Positions 12,371-26,884 of a stretch of DNA of 34,216 nt are shown piece by piece. Below the pieces are notes generated by a model, which saw nothing but the letters and a program-made list of their open reading frames with translations, made no database searches and was not told where the DNA came from. The first letter of the stretch is position 1. Every line of letters starts with the position of its first letter. Origin of the DNA: Gammaproteobacteria bacterium (GTDB lineage Bacteria > Pseudomonadota > Gammaproteobacteria > GCA-001735895). The stretch lies in contig JANTFI010000017.1 in the NCBI GenBank assembly GCA_024763505.1, forward strand, positions 1 through 34,216, read 5' to 3'. The translations under genes were made by a program, and so were the position numbers.

Positions 12371-13978
12371 ATGAAATCTGCAAAAAATACCAACCCAAAA
12401 GATTCTAAAGTCTATCTGGTCGGCAGTGGCATCGCATCACTGGCCAGCGCCACGTATTTGATAAAAGATGCCGGAGTGCCCGGCGAAAATATCCACATTC
12501 TGGAACAGGACGATATCGCCGGTGGCGCTTGTGACGGCGCAGGCTCGACACAGCAAGGCTATGTGGTGCGTGGCGGACGCATGCATGAAAAGCATTATGA
12601 ATGCTACTGGGATTTTTTATCCAACATTCCATCCTACGATGACCCCGATATTTCCGTCCGGGATGAATCTTTCGAGTTTAACAGCCGTTTCGTTTCTAAC
12701 GCACAGGCGCGCCTGCTGAAAGATGGTAAAAAAGTCGATGTATCGACCTATGGACTGTCTTTGCAGGATCAGGCAGAGCTGATCAAACTCACCTTTGTTT
12801 CTGAGCGCTCGCTCGATAATTTGCGTATCGAAGACTGGTTCAATCAGGCTTTCTTCGACACCAATTTCTGGCATATCTGGACGTCCATGTTTGCATTTCA
12901 GAAATGGAGTAGCGTGGCTGAAATGCGTCGCTACATGAAGCGTTTCATCCATCTGGTTGATGGTCTGTATAAAATTGGTGGCATCATGCGCACCAAATAC
13001 AACCAATATCACTCGGTGGTTTTGCCAACCCAGCGTTATTTGCAGCAAAGAGGCGTGCATTTTGATATGAACACTCAGGTGATGGATATCGATTTCAACC
13101 TGTCGGCCGATAAGAAAACGGCCACATTATTAAAGATTGTGAACCGCGATGGTATTGAGGATGAAATCGTGCTGGGTGCGAATGACTATGTCTTTATCAC
13201 CAATGGCTCGATCACCGAAAGCTCCGACAATGGCTCGTGGGACAAAGCGCCGGAATTGAAACAAAAATCGACCTCCGGAGCCTGGATGCTGTGGGAGAAA
13301 ATCGCAAAAAAAGACAAGGCTTTCGGCAACCCCGGTGCGTTCAGTGACCATATCGATTTACAGAAATGGTATTCATTTACCGCGACCTTAAACGATTCAA
13401 CCTTCCACGATTACATGGAGAATTTTTCGGGCAATGTCGATGGAACCGGCGGGCTGGTGACCATGACGGATTCCAACTGGCTGATGTCAATCGTGATCGC
13501 TCGCCAGCCCCATTTCCCCGATCAACCCAAAGACGTCAAAATATTCTGGGGCTATGGTTTGTACCCTGATCGCAAAGGTAATTTCGTCAACAAGAAAATG
13601 TCGGAATGTACGGGCGAAGAAATTCTGCAAGAGCTTTGGTATCACCTGAAGATTCAGGATTTAATGAACCCGGTTGTGGCAGCCGGCAAGGTTATCAATT
13701 GCATTCCGGTGGCGATGCCTTTCATCGACAGCCTGTTTATGCCACGTGCGCAGGGCGATCGACCACAGGTTTTGTCGGAAGGCTCAACCAACTTTGCATT
13801 TCTGGGACAATTTTCCGAAGTGCCCATCGATTGTGTGTTTACCGTCGAATATTCGGTTCGTTGCGCCCAGATGGCGGTTTATGGCTTGTTCAAAACCGAT
13901 AAAAAAGTCATTCCCGTGTATGACTCGATTCATCAGGCGAAATATCTGGTGAAGGCCATGAAAGCACTCTCGAGATAA
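12371..13978 (+). CDS. ohyA: Oleate hydratase (FAD, myosin-cross-reactive antigen family)
   Basis: This is a 535-residue flavoprotein. The N-terminal FAD motif is VYLVGSGIASLASATYLI (about 15-32), followed by GENIHILEQDDIAGGACDGAG. Family blocks include KHYECYWDFLSNIPS, MRTKYNQYHSVVLPTQRYL, VFITNGSITESSDNG, WGYGLYPDRKGNFVNKKM and FLGQFSEVPIDCVFTVEYSVR. The enzyme adds water to the cis-9 double bond of oleic acid to give 10-hydroxystearate. It is probably used for detoxifying or remodelling unsaturated fatty acids. The usual RGGREM is RGGRMH here (Met71, His72), so the conserved Glu tied to water activation is replaced. Some family members, such as the Rhodococcus type, are recalled to have Met at this place. 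AAAGGAAGAA lies just before the ATG. Confidence 0.92.
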   Translation: MKSAKNTNPKDSKVYLVGSGIASLASATYLIKDAGVPGENIHILEQDDIAGGACDGAGSTQQGYVVRGGRMHEKHYECYWDFLSNIPSYDDPDISVRDESFEFNSRFVSNAQARLLKDGKKVDVSTYGLSLQDQAELIKLTFVSERSLDNLRIEDWFNQAFFDTNFWHIWTSMFAFQKWSSVAEMRRYMKRFIHLVDGLYKIGGIMRTKYNQYHSVVLPTQRYLQQRGVHFDMNTQVMDIDFNLSADKKTATLLKIVNRDGIEDEIVLGANDYVFITNGSITESSDNGSWDKAPELKQKSTSGAWMLWEKIAKKDKAFGNPGAFSDHIDLQKWYSFTATLNDSTFHDYMENFSGNVDGTGGLVTMTDSNWLMSIVIARQPHFPDQPKDVKIFWGYGLYPDRKGNFVNKKMSECTGEEILQELWYHLKIQDLMNPVVAAGKVINCIPVAMPFIDSLFMPRAQGDRPQVLSEGSTNFAFLGQFSEVPIDCVFTVEYSVRCAQMAVYGLFKTDKKVIPVYDSIHQAKYLVKAMKALSR

Positions 13979-14012
13979 TAGGAAACGGTTGTAACAATTT
14001 ACGAGTTGCTGG

Positions 14013-14636
14013 TTATTCGGCTAGCCAGCTTGCCGATGTAAGGGTTTCACCCGATTGAGAAATACTGCCTTCGAAGTGGTCGCGGGTGATGATTTCACCC
14101 ACGCCTTTTGGTGTACCGGTCATGATGATGTCTCCATCATTCAGGGTCATGAATGTTTGCAATTCCTGAAGAATTTGCAGCGGTTGGTAAATCATTAAAT
14201 CAATACTGCCCTGCTGCCGAATCTGTTCGTTGATCTTCAGTTGCAAACTCAGGTCGAGGTTGCGTTCTTCGAATGTCACGAACGGACTGAACAGAGCAGA
14301 GCCATCGAAGGCCTTGGCGCGCTCCCACGGCAAGCCCTTGGTTTTGAGCCGGCTTTGCAACTGTCGTTTGGTGATGTCCAGTCCAAAACCGACTGCAGCC
14401 AGCCTGGAATCGATCACCATGAAACAGATTTCGCCTTCGTAGTGCAGAGGCTCCTGTGGATCAGCCCGCAAATGGTTGCTGATCGCCGAGTTGGGTTTGA
14501 TAAAGACAACCATATCGTCCGGGATTTCATTGCCGAGTTCGTGAATATGTTCGACATAGTTTCGACCAATGCAGACGATTTTACCAGGTGCGACCGGCTT
14601 GCCATCGAGCAACACGGTATTGGGTAGATTATTCAT
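14013..14636 (-). CDS. Fumarylacetoacetate hydrolase family protein
   Basis: I choose the ATG at 14636 ([15 protein letters not shown]), giving 207 residues, since the short FAHD domain starts there. The frame is also open to an ATG at 14663 inside the upstream gene. Family motifs are [27 protein letters not shown], the metal-binding [27 protein letters not shown] and [14 protein letters not shown]. Members hydrolyse acylpyruvates or decarboxylate oxaloacetate with a Mg ion. The substrate here is not decidable. It overlaps the DUF188 gene by 8 bases, so the two form an operon. It is convergent with the oleate hydratase gene, 34 bases away. Confidence 0.88.
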
Positions 14637-15084
14637 GAGTATTTTTAGCCAGAAAGCGGTCAAGATGATTGGCGAATTGTTGACGGTCCGATTGATTCAG
14701 TGGCGGTGGCCCGCCGGTATTGACGCCACTGGCGCGCATTGATTCCATGAAGTCGCGCATGTTCAGCCGCGAGCGGATATTTTCCAACGTATAAAGCTCA
14801 CCGCGCGGGCTTAATGCTGTTGCGCCTTTTTCGATCGCTTCCGCGGCCAATGGAATATCGCTGGTAATGACCAGATCACCGGCTTGCAGACGTTTCACGA
14901 TTTCATTGTCGGCAACATCAAAACCGGAAGCCACACGCAAGCTGCGAATATATTTTGAATTCGGTACCTGAACCGACTGATTGGCTACCAGTGTCAACCC
15001 GGTTTGCGTACGGTTTGCCGCTTTGAACAGAATTTCCTTGATGACGACCGGACAGGCATCGGCATCACACCAGATTTGCATCAA
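14629..15084 (-). CDS. YaiI/YqxD family protein (DUF188)
   Basis: This is a 151-residue protein with [20 protein letters not shown] at the N-terminus, [38 protein letters not shown] and [20 protein letters not shown]. These are the signatures of the widely conserved YaiI/YqxD family (PIN-like fold, acidic residues that could bind metal). Its function is not established. It is the first gene of a two-gene minus-strand unit with the FAA-hydrolase gene. An AGGAAATATTG-like stretch (minus strand, about 15085-15096) precedes the ATG. The divergent region to the beta-propeller gene is 123 bases. Confidence 0.9.
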
Positions 15085-15207
15085 TATTTCCTCGAGAGTT
15101 GCTTTTGGAATAGTAACCGATGCCCCGGCATTTCGGGTAAATAATTGGCTTGTTTTGAGAGCATTTTCGTTTCAGACTAGAGCTTCCCCGGCCTCTGGAG
15201 AAAGCCT

Positions 15208-17220
15208 GTGAACCAACTTACCCGCCAAATCTTGCCGAGCCTGTTTTTTGCCCTGATCAGTTCGCTTTTACTGCAAGCCTGCACACCTTCCGAACAAAAT
15301 GAGGAAGACGGTTTTCGTTATCGCAGCGCGCTCCAACCCTTTACCAGTTGTGATGAATTGACTGATTACCTGATCGAAACAGCGCAGCAGGAAAGCAAAC
15401 TGGTTGATTATTATTATGCGTTACCAGTGGTAGTTGATAGCCGGGTGATGGATGGAGTTTTGTCCGATGCAAGCAACAATGAAGCAGCGGGTACAGCGTC
15501 AGCAGAGGATTCTTCAGCGCAAGCCACAACCGCTATCGATCAATTTACCGGCACCAATAATCAGGTGAGCGGGGTCGATGAGGGGGATTTCGTCAAAACC
15601 GATGGCGAGTACAGTTATCTTCTCAGTGGCGGTTATCTGGTTATCATCGATAGCTGGCCTGCCGATCAGACCCATGAAGTATCCCGACTCAAACTCGAAG
15701 GAAGTCCGCAGGCGCTGTTCGTAAAAGACGATCTGCTATGGGTGGTGAGCCAGCTGTATCGTTACCGCGACAGTGAGCCGGTGCAGCCGATGCAATTCGT
15801 TTCCCGCAGTGAGCAGTGGGCGCAGGTGACAATGCTCGATATCAGTCAGAGAGATGCACCGGTGGTGGTTCGGAAGGTGGATTTTGAAGGCAATTACCTG
15901 GACGCCCGGCGTATCGATAATCAGGTTTATATGGTGTCAACCGCCCGACTGGATTTGTCGTCCTATCTGGATGCCAGCGGCGAGCTGGACATGGAAACCC
16001 TGTTACCGGTGTTTGAAGATACAAAAATATCAGGCGATTCAGCACAGCGAAGCCGCCACCTGATCAGTAAATGTGGTCAGATTTTTCGACCGGAAACTGC
16101 CAACGGCACAGGCACGTTATCGTTGATCAGCTTTGATCTGGCTGACCCTTATGCCGAGTTACAGCGACAAAGTATCATCAGTGATGGTGGACAGGTGTAT
16201 GCCAATCGTGATCATTTGTATCTCGCGATGATGGAAAATGAATTCTGGCGCTGGCAGCCGGTCATGCAGGAGCAGGCGGAACAACCGATACCCGGCACCA
16301 CGCTGCACAAGTTTTCCCTGTCCGGGCAACCGCAATATCTCGCCAGCGGACGTGTTGATGGGTATATGCTGAATCAGTTTTCGATGGATGAACAAGACGA
16401 CCTGCTGCGTATCGTCACCACCAGCGATGCCTGGTGGAGTGATGAGCCACCACAGAACAGCCTGTTCATTCTGCAACAGAATGGCGGGGAGTTGACTGTT
16501 CGCAGCAAGCTCGGCGGCCTCGGCAAGCCCGGCGAGCGTATTTATTCTGCACGATTTATCGGCGATCAAGCCTTTGTCGTGACCTTCGAACAGATCGACC
16601 CGCTGTACACATTGGATTTATCAGATCCCGATGCGCCACGGGTGGCCGGAGAACTCGAAGTGCCGGGGTTTTCCACCTATCTGCACCCGATCGGGGATGA
16701 CTTGCTGCTTGCCATCGGCCGCAACCCCGAGTCTGGCTCGGTCAAGCTGAGTCTGTTTGACACCCACATTTTTGACCAGCCGGAATTACTGCATAGTGAA
16801 GAACTGGGGCAGGGCAGTAATTCGGAAGCCGAATACAGCCACAAGGCATTCAGCTGGTTTGCCGCCGAGCAGACACTGGCGCTGCCGGTTTCCCGCTGGC
16901 GATCTGTGCTTGCCGGTGATGCTTATCAATACGATGTCTTCAACGGCTTGCAACTTTATCAGGTCGATCGTGATACTGGATTCCAACTGCGCGGCAGTAT
17001 CGATCACAGCAGTTTTTATCAGGATGATGAAACCCGGCGGTGGTTTTACCCGGAAGGGATACGCCGAAGCTTTTTCATCATGGACGAGCTACAGAACAGC
17101 TTTGTTTACTCGATCAGTGCCCGCGGGCTGAAAGTCAATGCGCTGGATGACCTGAATACTGATCTGGCCGCGGTTTCTCTGCCCGCGTATGATTGGCAGA
17201 ATATTTTTCTGGAGGATTAA
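15208..17220 (+). CDS. Beta-propeller domain lipoprotein
   Basis: This is a 670-residue protein. It starts at a GTG at 15208 behind CTGGAGAAA. A lipoprotein signal peptide ends at LLLQAC, with Cys25 the lipidated residue; position +2 is Thr, so outer-membrane sorting is likely. A low-complexity Ala/Ser/Thr segment (about 90-110) precedes NNQVSGVDEGDFVKTDGEYS, the hallmark of the secreted beta-propeller family (PF09826-type). Repeated blade-like strands follow (YLLSGGYLVIIDSW, QVTMLDIS, GSVKLSLFDTHIF). Function is unknown, and there are no catalytic residues I recognise. The next small lipoprotein gene starts 4 bases after its stop, so they are co-transcribed. It probably acts as a surface or periplasmic scaffold. 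Confidence 0.85.
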   Translation: MNQLTRQILPSLFFALISSLLLQACTPSEQNEEDGFRYRSALQPFTSCDELTDYLIETAQQESKLVDYYYALPVVVDSRVMDGVLSDASNNEAAGTASAEDSSAQATTAIDQFTGTNNQVSGVDEGDFVKTDGEYSYLLSGGYLVIIDSWPADQTHEVSRLKLEGSPQALFVKDDLLWVVSQLYRYRDSEPVQPMQFVSRSEQWAQVTMLDISQRDAPVVVRKVDFEGNYLDARRIDNQVYMVSTARLDLSSYLDASGELDMETLLPVFEDTKISGDSAQRSRHLISKCGQIFRPETANGTGTLSLISFDLADPYAELQRQSIISDGGQVYANRDHLYLAMMENEFWRWQPVMQEQAEQPIPGTTLHKFSLSGQPQYLASGRVDGYMLNQFSMDEQDDLLRIVTTSDAWWSDEPPQNSLFILQQNGGELTVRSKLGGLGKPGERIYSARFIGDQAFVVTFEQIDPLYTLDLSDPDAPRVAGELEVPGFSTYLHPIGDDLLLAIGRNPESGSVKLSLFDTHIFDQPELLHSEELGQGSNSEAEYSHKAFSWFAAEQTLALPVSRWRSVLAGDAYQYDVFNGLQLYQVDRDTGFQLRGSIDHSSFYQDDETRRWFYPEGIRRSFFIMDELQNSFVYSISARGLKVNALDDLNTDLAAVSLPAYDWQNIFLED

Positions 17221-17224
17221 CCCC

Positions 17225-17548
17225 GTGGGTTTGAGCCGCATATTTGCTCTGTCACTATTCGTAACCAGTTTGTCGGGCTGTACTACTGGCAGCACGGTTG
17301 TCAATGGACCAGTTACCGAAGCCATCGAGACCGCCGAGGTCAGTGTTCATTACCAGGCACCACCCTGTGCGTTTGAACCGGTTGCCGATATCGAATTGAA
17401 TGGAGGCTATTTTTCGCGTGCTGCATTGCTTGATGGTTTCCGCGAAAAGGCGGCCCAACTCGGCGCTAATGTGGTTCAGGTGACTTATCTGAAGAAGATC
17501 GGCAGCAATGAATACTACGGTAGTGCGCGGGCATTGCGCTGCCATTAG
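17225..17548 (+). CDS. Small lipoprotein (DUF4156/RcsF-like style)
   Basis: I choose the GTG at 17225, giving 107 residues, because a strong GGAGGA lies about 8 bases upstream and a lipoprotein signal peptide begins there (GLSRIFALSLFVTSLSGC, Cys19 lipidated). The open frame also reaches an ATG at 17189, inside the preceding gene. The mature part has two further Cys (PPCAFEPVADIELNGGYF and the terminal LRCH) and a block GFREKAAQLGANVVQVTYL. That layout resembles small envelope lipoproteins of the DUF4156 or RcsF kind, where a disulfide stabilises the fold. The family assignment is tentative. It sits between the propeller lipoprotein and the VgrG-like gene. Confidence 0.75.
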   Translation: MGLSRIFALSLFVTSLSGCTTGSTVVNGPVTEAIETAEVSVHYQAPPCAFEPVADIELNGGYFSRAALLDGFREKAAQLGANVVQVTYLKKIGSNEYYGSARALRCH

Positions 17549-17617
17549 AATAAATGAATCGCGTAAGTGAATCGCGGGCCCGGAGGCCAACCGGCAACAC
17601 CAAAAAAGGAGGGAATC

Positions 17618-19465
17618 ATGAACATCAAACCAATACTCATCGTTTTATTTAGTGCCAGCCTGTTCGCTGGCACTGCTCAGGCAGACTTGTCATCATGGTT
17701 CAAGGAGTGGGCGCAAAACAAGACGGCCCGATTACCTGCTGCTGCGTTAAACCAAAACCGCGCTTCAGATGAGCCAGAACATCGCGCTAAATCCCGCCAT
17801 TCGATTAGGAGCTGGTTTCGTAGTCGATTCTGGATACGCAATCCTGTACGCACATCCAGCCATCAGTGGCATTCCTCTTCAGATGATTCAGATGATTCAG
17901 ATGATTCGGATGATGATGATTCATCTGACAATGAACATGGTAACCAGCGAATTCATGCAGCTGTATTTGGTCGGCTGGCCGACTTGCAGCGCCAGATCAA
18001 TGCAATTGAATTAACACCCGGACCGCAAGGCGAGACCGGCCCCCCAGGTCCGGCTGGAGGCAACAGTCGCCTCGATGCGGTTGCTTCGCTGTTACCGACT
18101 GGTCAACTTCTGGCCGGTTTTCCGGCACAGACCTTTAATGCCTATCAATGCACGCAAAACAGTGGCAACGACATGAGCGTAAACATCGGCAGCAATCAGT
18201 ATCGAGGCATTGCCTTTGCCGGCAAGGATGAAATCTCGCAGTTGCCGGTGTATTACGCCGCGTTTGAAACCAGCGAAGCCTTGCCCGCCAATAGTCTGAT
18301 CGGAGCAGCTGCCAATGTCGCGCTGCAAATCGGTCAGCGCAGCTCGGCTTTCGGCGGGCTGGTAAGCGCAGCCGGGGTCGCCTCAGTCGATAATGGGCAA
18401 GTGATCATGGCTGTGAAAATCAAAAGTACACTGGCCCTTCTGGCCAGAAATCAGGCCAATCATGCCTATCAGGGGAACACAGTGCCGTCACTGCTGGAGT
18501 ATATTCTGCAAGCCAATGGTATCGATTTCAGCCTGTCACTGAACAATACCTATTCTGAGGAAGATTTCATTCTGCAGTATCAGCAAACCGATTTACAATT
18601 TGTATACAGATTATTAAGCGACAATGGAATGCTTTATCACTTTGCCGACGATGGTGAATTATTGATTACAGACCAGATATCCACGCAGGGTAATGCCATC
18701 GATACGCTCTACGCGGGACATTTGCAAAGCGGGCTGGACAATGCCCTGGCCACGTTGCGGCTGGCCGGAGCTTCCGGCAGCGCTGCTTTTAATGTCAGCG
18801 GTTTCAATTATCAGCAGGCAGGCACGCCATTATCGGCCAGCGAAACTGCGGACGGCTTTGGCACGATCGATGTTTTCAGCCAGTCTCTGGATAGTGCATC
18901 TGCGGTGCAGTCATTGGCCCTGTTACTGAAAAACCGGGATTTATCGACCCGCAGCCGCACCCTCGGTAGTGGCTATTACCCGGAATTTCGCGCCGGCAAG
19001 CGGATTAGCATCAGCGATCAATCGGCCTCGGCTGCATCCACTCAGTGGCTGCTTACTGGTGTGCGTCATGTCGCATTGCGCGATGCCGACAATGATTGCA
19101 TCAATTACGCCAACCAGTTTACTGCTTCCGGCAAGATCTCAGGCTATCAGCCCATACCGAAACAGCCTGACCAGAAAATCGCCGGGGTGATCACTGCCAC
19201 GGTGACCGGTCCTGCAGGTGAGCGTTATCACACGGATGAACTTGGGCGGGTTCAGGTTCGCTTCCATTGGGGTGATGATTCGGTCTGGCTGCGCGTGATG
19301 ATGCCAGCCGGAAGGCTCGAGGACAGTAATGTCTTTATTCCCGAAATTGGCGATGAAGTGGTGATCAGCTTTGTCGAAGGCGATCCGGATCGGCCGATCG
19401 TTATCGGAACGGTGTTCAATTCCGCCTCGCCACCCCCGATACCGCTACCGGACAGCCTCAACTAG
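17618..19465 (+). CDS. Sec-exported VgrG-like protein with Asp/Ser repeat and collagen-like triplets
   Basis: I choose the ATG at 17618 behind AAGGAGGG, giving 615 residues. The frame extends to 17567 without a ribosome site. Residues 1-22 form a Sec signal peptide ending AQA. A basic region (52-75) is followed by an Asp/Ser tract (about 87-104), a short helix (110-131), and collagen-like triplets GPQGETGPPGPAGG (135-148). From about 205 the protein is VgrG/phage gpD-like: NTVPSLLEYILQANGI, then ILQYQQTDLQFVYRLLSDNG. The C-terminus (about 545-615) is the gp5/gpV OB-fold: GPAGERYHTDELGRVQVRFH, VFIPEIGDEVVISFVEGDP, PIVIGTVFN. VgrG proteins form the spike of type VI or other contractile injectors and normally lack signal peptides. 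No such machinery is nearby. It may be a surface or secreted spike protein. Confidence 0.8.
   Translation: MNIKPILIVLFSASLFAGTAQADLSSWFKEWAQNKTARLPAAALNQNRASDEPEHRAKSRHSIRSWFRSRFWIRNPVRTSSHQWHSSSDDSDDSDDSDDDDSSDNEHGNQRIHAAVFGRLADLQRQINAIELTPGPQGETGPPGPAGGNSRLDAVASLLPTGQLLAGFPAQTFNAYQCTQNSGNDMSVNIGSNQYRGIAFAGKDEISQLPVYYAAFETSEALPANSLIGAAANVALQIGQRSSAFGGLVSAAGVASVDNGQVIMAVKIKSTLALLARNQANHAYQGNTVPSLLEYILQANGIDFSLSLNNTYSEEDFILQYQQTDLQFVYRLLSDNGMLYHFADDGELLITDQISTQGNAIDTLYAGHLQSGLDNALATLRLAGASGSAAFNVSGFNYQQAGTPLSASETADGFGTIDVFSQSLDSASAVQSLALLLKNRDLSTRSRTLGSGYYPEFRAGKRISISDQSASAASTQWLLTGVRHVALRDADNDCINYANQFTASGKISGYQPIPKQPDQKIAGVITATVTGPAGERYHTDELGRVQVRFHWGDDSVWLRVMMPAGRLEDSNVFIPEIGDEVVISFVEGDPDRPIVIGTVFNSASPPPIPLPDSLN
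17879..17931 (+). repeat. Short tandem repeat encoding Asp-Asp-Ser
   Basis: The 9-base unit TCAGATGAT is repeated about three times perfectly and then degenerates (TCGGATGATGATGAT, TCATCTGAC). It lies inside the VgrG-like gene and encodes an acidic Asp/Ser linker between the exported N-terminus and the collagen-like segment. Such direct repeats can change copy number by slippage. Because the unit is a multiple of 3, this would alter linker length without breaking the frame. Confidence 0.85.
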
Positions 19466-25246: not shown

Positions 25247-26884
25247 TCAGCTTTTGACCGCTGCCAGCACATCGGCATTGGCAATCGGCGCAATGCGCTG
25301 GAAATTCATGAAATTCGGCATTTTTCTCATCAGTTCGGCGATTTGCTGTTCGCTGTCGAAGTTGCCACCATAGATCAGCGTGTACTGGTCGTCGGCGGTC
25401 TTGAAATAGCCCAGCTCTTCGGTGAAATAGCGGTTGTAGCGCTGCGCGATTTCATATAGTTCCTGCTTGTCGCTGACGGTGGCGATCTTGATGGAAAACT
25501 GGTCGGCATTCAGTTTGCTCAGCCACTCGGAACCATGAATGGTATTGTCCGAGCCAAAGTTGTAGAGCGGGGCAAGGTATTGCACCCGGCCATCCAGACT
25601 TTCCACCTGATCATTCATGCTGACCAGTTTTTCTTCAATCGCCTGGGCTTTTTGTTCGACCACCTGCTCGAGTTGCTGCGATTTTTCAACCAGTTGGGAT
25701 TTGACATCAGTTAGATTCTTTTGCAGTTCAACGATGTCGGAATAAAAGACCTGGGAAGCCATTTGCTCATCTTCCACGCGCAATTGTAAATCGCTGACCT
25801 GAGCATCCACAGTCTTGTTGACTTCGCCCTGTACCGCGAGGTCGGTATCGCGCTGATATTGTCCATAAAAGAATACGCCGAGCACGGCCAGCAGTAGCAG
25901 GATACTGGCTGCGGCCATCACGTTGAAGTGTTTGCGCTCGAGTGATGCCAGCGCCAGCATGGTGCGGGTGATCGAACTGGTTTTGTTTTCCAGACCATCG
26001 ATCTGGCCTTGTTGCTGTTCATTTTGCTCGGCCAGTTTGGCGGTATGATTTTCCAGCGCTTCTACATCGTCAACCAGCTTGGCTGTCAGCACATCCAGCA
26101 CTTCAGTACTATCACGCAGATTCTGGCTTTCGGCAATCAATTGGTCAGAAGTTACTTCCAGTGCAGCGGTTCGTTTTTCCAGAGCTTCATCCACGCTTTG
26201 CATCAGCAGCATCTTGGCTTTCTGACTGCTGATTTCTTCGTTGCTGGAATTGATGCGCTGATCCAGTTTACTGTCGCGAGCTTGCGAGATTTGCGCGACA
26301 TTCTCCAGCTCGGTAACAATGCGTGCTTCCAGTTCGGTCAGCGCCTTGTGGTTTTCCTTGATGCTTTTGCTCAACTTGGTGCTGATGGTTTTCACATTCT
26401 TTGACAGTTTCGCGGCGCGCTCGATGATATCATCCTGCTGCTGTTGCAAACCGGCGTTGACTTGCTGTTGGCTTTCAACCGCGCTGGAAAGTGCTTTCGA
26501 GGAGGATTTTTCGAAAGCTTTAATATCCTTGTTGACCTTTTTCAGATCCGAATTGAGTTGGCTGGAAGCCTGATTGAGTTGATCAAAGATTTGATCGATA
26601 ACACCCAGTTGCTTGTAGGTTTCGGTAACCTTTTCGGTGATTTCAGCATCCGAATCGGTCAAACGCGAAACATCGGTCTTGATCTGTTTGTTGGTGGCAT
26701 TGAGTTTTTTGGTCAATGCGGTGACGGATTTTTCCAGAGCCGTCATTTGTTTGTTGATTTCCAGCACCTGTTTTTCATTACCGTTTTCCGGCATGGAAAC
26801 CAGGTTGTCGGATGGATGCTCCACTGGCTGCTCCAGCGAGGTGGAGTCTTCCGGGAAGGTGTCTCGTTGTGTATTTTGTACCAT
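25247..26884 (-). CDS. Single-span coiled-coil protein with SPOR-like C-terminus
   Basis: This is a 545-residue protein. Residues 35-315 are almost wholly coiled coil (heptads rich in Leu, Lys, Glu, Gln). One membrane helix is at about 321-343 (VMAAASILLLLAVLGVFF). A second, periplasmic coiled coil (about 350-435) leads to a C-terminal domain from about 465: FSIKIATVSDKQELYEIAQR, YTLIYGGNFDSEQQIAELMR, FQRIAPI. This reads like a SPOR domain, which binds glycan strands stripped of stem peptides. The topology puts the long coil in the cytoplasm and the SPOR-like end at the cell wall. That suggests a link between cytoplasm and peptidoglycan, perhaps in division or cell shape. I do not recognise a named family. 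The start lacks a good ribosome site. Confidence 0.75.
   Translation of the reverse strand: MVQNTQRDTFPEDSTSLEQPVEHPSDNLVSMPENGNEKQVLEINKQMTALEKSVTALTKKLNATNKQIKTDVSRLTDSDAEITEKVTETYKQLGVIDQIFDQLNQASSQLNSDLKKVNKDIKAFEKSSSKALSSAVESQQQVNAGLQQQQDDIIERAAKLSKNVKTISTKLSKSIKENHKALTELEARIVTELENVAQISQARDSKLDQRINSSNEEISSQKAKMLLMQSVDEALEKRTAALEVTSDQLIAESQNLRDSTEVLDVLTAKLVDDVEALENHTAKLAEQNEQQQGQIDGLENKTSSITRTMLALASLERKHFNVMAAASILLLLAVLGVFFYGQYQRDTDLAVQGEVNKTVDAQVSDLQLRVEDEQMASQVFYSDIVELQKNLTDVKSQLVEKSQQLEQVVEQKAQAIEEKLVSMNDQVESLDGRVQYLAPLYNFGSDNTIHGSEWLSKLNADQFSIKIATVSDKQELYEIAQRYNRYFTEELGYFKTADDQYTLIYGGNFDSEQQIAELMRKMPNFMNFQRIAPIANADVLAAVKS

What the first reader, a model, noticed from the sequence alone, without database searches (positions are those of the whole stretch)
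17618..19465. VgrG-like spike protein with a Sec signal peptide and collagen-like stalk
The sequence shows a 22-residue signal peptide, a basic region, an Asp/Ser tract, collagen-like GPQGETGPPGPAGG, and then a gpD-like and gp5 OB-fold of the VgrG type. VgrG spikes are normally loaded in the cytoplasm and have no signal peptide. No sheath, tube, baseplate or ATPase gene is near. The protein may have been recruited as an exported, surface-anchored or released spike-like factor.
Basis: partly seen in the sequence, partly recalled or inferred. Interest (0 to 1): 0.65.

Follow-up and report, generated by a model that had tools for sequence, protein, structure and literature searches.

The report
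Exported collagen-stalked VgrG hub protein
A gammaproteobacterium encodes a VgrG-like protein, normally the tip of an injection machine, that has lost its needle and gained an export signal and a collagen-like stalk; one distant relative, in a genome where no such machine was found, has the same layout, so the part appears to have been reused as an exported protein.

Summary
The ORF at 17618-19465 (ATG after AAGGAGGG) encodes a Sec-type signal peptide, a basic stretch, an Asp/Ser tract, a short coiled coil, a collagen run (G135-N149) and a VgrG core (Phage_GPD 7e-29, OB fold 6e-15; TIGR03361 229 bits, cut-off 186). The model matches VgrG1 (4mtk, TM 0.82). The protein stops just after the OB fold, so it has no needle or PAAR seat. 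The genome has a separate canonical T6SS with its own unsigned VgrG. One homologue was found (SZUA-75 MAG, same family, 36% identical): same signal peptide, IELTPGP collagen start with 19 GXY triplets, VgrG core, no needle. That genome has no detectable TssC, TssK or TssF. Both proteins share two cysteines absent from 26 ordinary VgrGs, and an altered OB loop. A Nitrospinaceae protein has the same N-terminal module with a CTHRC1-type head. Best reading: a VgrG hub domesticated as the trimeric head of an exported collagen-stalked protein, independent of T6SS. What it binds, and whether it stays in the periplasm, sits on the surface or is released, is unknown. New variant of a known kind; only two members found.

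The parts
17606..17613 (+). Shine-Dalgarno AAGGAGGG
   Evidence: sequence
17618..19465 (+). whole gene, 615 aa (P0001)
17618..17683 (+). Sec-type signal peptide, residues 1-22, AQA|D
   Evidence: hydropathy; homologue also ends ...VLA|D
17780..17869 (+). Arg-rich basic region, residues 55-84; a basic region is present in the homologue too
17873..17935 (+). Asp/Ser tract, residues 86-106; absent in the homologue
17948..18010 (+). coiled-coil-like segment, residues 111-131, leading into the conserved IELTPGP
   Evidence: heptad pattern read by eye
18020..18064 (+). collagen-like run of 5 GXY triplets, residues 135-149 (19 triplets in the homologue)
18149..18151 (+). Cys178, one of only two cysteines
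   Evidence: conserved in homologue, 0 of 26 ordinary VgrGs
18266..19072 (+). Phage_GPD (gp27-like hub) profile match, residues 217-485
   Evidence: fold match VgrG1 4mtk
19097..19099 (+). Cys494, the second cysteine
   Evidence: conserved in homologue, 0 of 26 ordinary VgrGs
19229..19417 (+). gp5-type OB fold, residues 538-600, with PAGRLED loop in place of the usual WAGxxWG
19418..19462 (+). C-terminal tail ending ...PPPIPLPDSLN; the needle that follows here in ordinary VgrGs is missing

Best explanation
It is a VgrG hub (gp27-like ring plus gp5 OB fold) taken out of contractile injection and reused as the C-terminal head of an exported, collagen-stalked protein. Proposed mechanism: the Sec machinery exports the chain and the signal peptide is removed at A22|D23 (inferred from sequence). 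Three chains pair through the coiled coil at residues 111-131 and zip into a collagen triple helix (inferred; both modules, and the VgrG hub, are three-fold). The VgrG cores close into a trimeric ring, possibly stiffened by a Cys178-Cys494 disulphide formed outside the cytoplasm (inferred). The result is a stalked trimeric head that works like other bacterial collagen-stalked binding proteins, with the hub/OB surface as ligand- or surface-binding head and the basic N-terminal region holding it to the envelope or matrix (inferred, weakest step). It does not act as a T6SS tip. Shown: domain content, absence of a needle, retention of the same layout in a second genome lacking T6SS markers, and attachment of the same kind of N-terminal module to another head.
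For: VgrG core by profile and fold: PF05954 7e-29, PF04717 6e-15, TIGR03361 229 bits, PDB sequence hit to VgrG1 over residues 200-612, AlphaFold model pLDDT 79 / pTM 0.77, best Foldseek match VgrG1 4mtk TM 0.82. The homologue in G024 (MAG SZUA-75) keeps signal peptide, basic region, IELTPGP collagen start, GPD, OB and the needle-less end at 36% identity. G024 has no detected TssC, TssK or TssF and no ordinary VgrG. The own T6SS has its own unsigned VgrG. Window and G024 form a 100/100 clade on a long stem (1.56), apart from all ordinary VgrGs. Both cysteines are shared by the pair and absent in 26 ordinary VgrGs; the WAGxxWG loop is replaced in both. Same kind of N-module with a CTHRC1_C (C1q-like) head in a Nitrospinaceae protein (PMC7058181 for the domain). 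No signal peptide seen on the ordinary VgrGs read here, in line with PMC2492809, where SignalP found none on VgrG orthologues.
Against: Only two members are known, from about 770 whole genomes searched with the profile plus one narrow pattern scan of 85,000 species, so 'family' rests on one homologue. Both genomes are drafts; G024 is a MAG. The signal peptide was judged without SignalP. No anchor or outer-membrane route was identified; T2SS was not tested. The disulphide was not measured (no coordinates available), and the homologue has a third cysteine. The collagen run in the window protein is short (5 triplets). G024 is 88% complete, and T6SS genes cluster, so their absence could be one missing region. 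No conserved neighbour hints at a ligand.
Confidence: 0.62

Rival explanations
1. A T6SS spike after all: the hydrophobic N terminus is an uncleaved membrane-acting cargo extension on a VgrG that is loaded in the cytoplasm by the T6SS elsewhere in this genome, with the collagen segment as a linker.
For: The genome does have a T6SS, and TIGR03361 scores above its cut-off.
Against: The needle that seats PAAR is missing in both proteins; the homologue sits in a genome with no detected TssC, TssK or TssF; the hydrophobic segment is signal-peptide sized with an A|D cleavage site in both; the OB loop WAGxxWG is lost.
Confidence: 0.1
2. An envelope-retained decoy or guard: the exported hub sits in the periplasm or on the surface and binds Hcp/VgrG parts, either of the cell's own T6SS or of an attacker, using the hub's tube-docking face.
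For: The hub fold that docks the Hcp tube in VgrG is kept; export is likely.
Against: No direct evidence. The homologue lives in a genome without T6SS markers of its own, so self-control is unlikely there, and conservation of the tube-docking face was not tested. Very rare for a general defence.
Confidence: 0.13
3. A decaying vgrG remnant that happens to be fused to an upstream signal peptide and repeat region.
For: Loss of the needle and position away from T6SS genes.
Against: 615-aa open frame with a strong ribosome site; the same fusion, the same end point and the same two cysteines in a homologue 36% identical.
Confidence: 0.04
4. Assembly chimera in a draft genome.
For: The genome is a draft in 229 contigs.
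Against: The independent G024 contig shows the same fusion at the protein level; no GC break across the gene.
Confidence: 0.02

Closest known systems
T6SS tip protein VgrG/TssI (TIGR03361; structures 4mtk, 7q5p)
   Same: gp27-like hub and gp5 OB fold across residues 198-612, TM 0.82 to VgrG1
   Different: has a signal peptide, charged region, coiled coil and collagen stalk; lacks the beta-helix needle; lacks the WAGxxWG loop; found away from T6SS genes and, in the homologue, in a genome with no T6SS marker detected
Secreted bacterial collagen-like proteins (Scl1/Scl2, Lcl; Nitrospinaceae collagen-CTHRC1 protein L039)
   Same: signal peptide, GXY triple-helix repeat and globular head; with L039 also the coiled coil and the IELTPGPQG start in the same order
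   Different: the head is a VgrG hub rather than a CTHRC1/C1q-like or adhesin domain; the stalk in the window protein is very short
Collagen-containing phage tail proteins EPclA/EPclB (PMC3368898)
   Same: collagen triple helix plus coiled coil joined to a phage-tail-derived trimer
   Different: those are prophage tail-fibre-type proteins; this is a signal-peptide-bearing protein outside any phage genes, with a hub instead of a fibre tip
eCIS hub Afp8/Pvc8
   Same: gp27/OB hub fold
   Different: no contractile particle genes in the window; those are cytoplasm-assembled hubs (from general knowledge, not tested here)

Membership tests
VgrG/TssI | gp27-like Phage_GPD domain followed by gp5 OB fold, TIGR03361 above cut-off | tested here: met
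VgrG/TssI | C-terminal beta-helix needle that carries PAAR | tested here: not met
   only 29 residues from the start of the EGDPxRP motif to the end, against 210 or more in ordinary VgrGs with that motif; TIGR03361 match stops at 456 of 513 while the own T6SS VgrG reaches 491
VgrG/TssI | no Sec signal peptide; loaded in the cytoplasm | tested here: not met
   signal-peptide-like N terminus in both exported proteins, none on ordinary VgrGs (PMC2492809). SignalP itself not run
VgrG/TssI | encoded in or serving a T6SS | tested here: inconclusive
   own genome has a T6SS elsewhere; homologue's genome has none detected
Exported bacterial collagen-like protein | signal peptide plus GXY triple-helix repeat | tested here: met
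   5 triplets here, 19 in the homologue, Pfam Collagen 2e-9 in the homologue; the window protein's own run is too short for Pfam to detect
Exported bacterial collagen-like protein | forms a trimeric triple helix outside the cytoplasm | not testable with these tools
   needs CD, sizing and localisation
Lipoprotein or surface-anchored protein | lipobox Cys, LPXTG or autotransporter barrel | tested here: not met
   no Cys at +1 (AQA|D), no C-terminal anchor seen in sequence; Pfam scan lists only GPD, OB and DUF6484

The most novel reading that the evidence does not exclude
A VgrG hub has been exapted into a Sec-exported, T6SS-independent, collagen-stalked trimeric protein: the core of a contractile injection tip reused as the head of an extracellular or periplasmic binding protein, kept in at least two lineages of one family.
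Probability: 0.6. Interest if true: 0.66.

Novelty: new variant of a known kind. Interest (0 to 1): 0.55.

Why it matters
VgrG is treated as diagnostic of contractile injection systems. A needle-less VgrG hub with a signal peptide and collagen stalk, kept where no T6SS marker is detected, would show that the hub fold can live outside injection machines, would warn against counting every TIGR03361 hit as a T6SS tip, and offers a hub that may fold and trimerise outside the cytoplasm. The literature searches here found no report of such a protein (open-access papers only).

Tried and rejected
Profile searches of 41 genomes of the order, 369 of the class and 398 of the phylum gave only the window and G024 as members; the weaker hits were read and none shows a signal peptide or collagen stalk. 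The GTDB pattern scan gave G024 and one N-module relative. Viral scans and plasmid/phage tblastn gave only ordinary VgrG-type matches, plus a phage protein sharing the collagen start (L037: collagen likeness only). The ELTPGPxGxxG motif occurs in 2 of 41 genomes of the order and in no other of 369 in the class. No other collagen match above cut-off in either genome. A functional link to the upstream lipoprotein-like genes was set aside because the homologue's neighbours (MOSC-like and M24-peptidase-like ORFs, read by eye) differ. The Burkholderia collagen paper cites VgrG only as T6SS background. The second structure job was not used.

Full report
OBSERVATION. The ATG at 17618 follows AAGGAGGG and the frame closes at 19465, 615 aa. 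The longer GTG start listed by the ORF finder (17567) would place the signal peptide 17 residues inside the protein. The N terminus reads MNIKPILIVLFSASLFAGTAQA|DL: a lysine, a hydrophobic core (9-residue hydropathy 2.64) and an A-X-A cleavage site; no later segment is hydrophobic enough for a typical membrane span. SignalP was not available. Then follow a basic stretch (55-84), an Asp/Ser tract (86-106), a coiled-coil-like helix (111-131, heptads judged by eye) and five GXY triplets (135-149). Shuffling the protein gives five triplets in 25 of 20,000 trials.

THE CORE. Residues 217-485 match Phage_GPD (7e-29) and 538-600 the gp5 OB domain (6e-15). NCBI's VgrG model TIGR03361 scores 229 bits against a cut-off of 186. 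By sequence the closest solved structure is 7q5p (VgrG1 of Pseudomonas protegens), residues 200-612. An AlphaFold model of residues 150-615 (nine sequences, mean pLDDT 79, pTM 0.77) matches VgrG1 4mtk with TM 0.82. The protein ends 29 residues after the start of the EGDPDRP motif; in the ordinary VgrGs of relatives where that motif is recognised, 210 or more residues follow. What is missing is the beta-helix needle and PAAR seat. It is therefore a hub, not a spike.

THE GENOME. The window's genome (3.08 Mb draft, 229 contigs, 91% complete) has a T6SS elsewhere: contig C58 carries TssC (partial), Hcp/TssD, TssE, TssF, TssG and a 1123-aa VgrG without a signal peptide; a full TssC lies on C160 and TssK on C155. 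No such gene was found among the window proteins scanned.

THE HOMOLOGUE. Across 41 genomes of the order, one other protein of this type was found: G024, whose contig corresponds to QIJI01000464 of MAG SZUA-75. It is 36% identical and has the same order of parts: signal peptide ending VLA|D, basic region, IAEIELTPGPPGE opening 19 GXY triplets (Pfam Collagen 2e-9), GPD, OB, and an end at PPVPLP. The Asp/Ser tract is not shared. G024 shows no TssC, TssK or TssF and no ordinary VgrG. It is 88% complete and T6SS genes cluster, so this absence counts as roughly one observation, not three.

SUBFAMILY MARKS. The window protein has exactly two cysteines, 178 and 494. Both are kept in the homologue; none of 26 ordinary VgrGs has a cysteine at either column. 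An exported protein could use these as a disulphide; I could not measure their distance. The OB-loop WAGxxWG common in ordinary VgrGs is PAG(R/K)LxD in both. In a tree of 30 hubs the two form a 100/100 pair on a stem of 1.56, away from the resident T6SS VgrG, which groups with those of sister species. This is not a recent copy of the resident VgrG.

THE N-TERMINAL MODULE IS PORTABLE. The genome scan also brought in a Nitrospinaceae protein (L039 2129-2866) with a signal peptide, charged stretch, coiled coil, IDTIELTPGPQGDTGPQG collagen and then a CTHRC1_C head (1e-7). That domain is C1q-like, and bacterial collagen-CTHRC1 combinations have been described (PMC7058181). The same kind of stalk thus carries different heads. 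Collagen helix, coiled coil and VgrG hub are all three-fold (established knowledge of these families), which makes the fusion mechanically sensible.

MECHANISM. Shown: domain content, no needle, conserved layout in a second genome without T6SS markers. Inferred: Sec export and cleavage, trimeric stalk, disulphide, binding role. Anchor, outer-membrane route and ligand are unknown. The alternative that it remains a T6SS tip is weakened by the missing needle and by G024; a decoy for Hcp/VgrG is possible but untested.

NOVELTY. SignalP work on VgrG orthologues found no signal peptides (PMC2492809), and five open-access literature searches found no VgrG with a collagen stalk. With two known members, both from draft genomes, I rate it a new variant of a known kind.

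Noticed in passing
L003 (G000:C58) 13012-16000: Just downstream of the T6SS vgrG/pentapeptide/PAAR-like block lies what reads as a two-partner secretion pair: a ShlB/FhaC-like ORF and the start of a filamentous-haemagglutinin-like ORF.
   Followed up: no
L039 2129-2866 (Nitrospinaceae MAG OFTM91): Signal peptide, coiled coil, 12-triplet collagen and CTHRC1_C head: a bacterial collagen-CTHRC1 protein sharing the IELTPGPQG start with the window protein.
   Followed up: partly
window 15208-17220 and 17189-17548: A beta-propeller (PF09826) protein and a small protein, both with lipobox-like N termini, overlap each other and end 70 bases before the exported VgrG gene; they may be co-transcribed with it.
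   Followed up: no
L003 4350-7721: The resident T6SS VgrG has a long C-terminal extension (1123 aa) and is followed by two ORFs rich in pentapeptide-like repeats.
   Followed up: no
window 25247-26884 (-): 545-aa ORF without a family above cut-off, only weak coiled-coil type matches.
   Followed up: no
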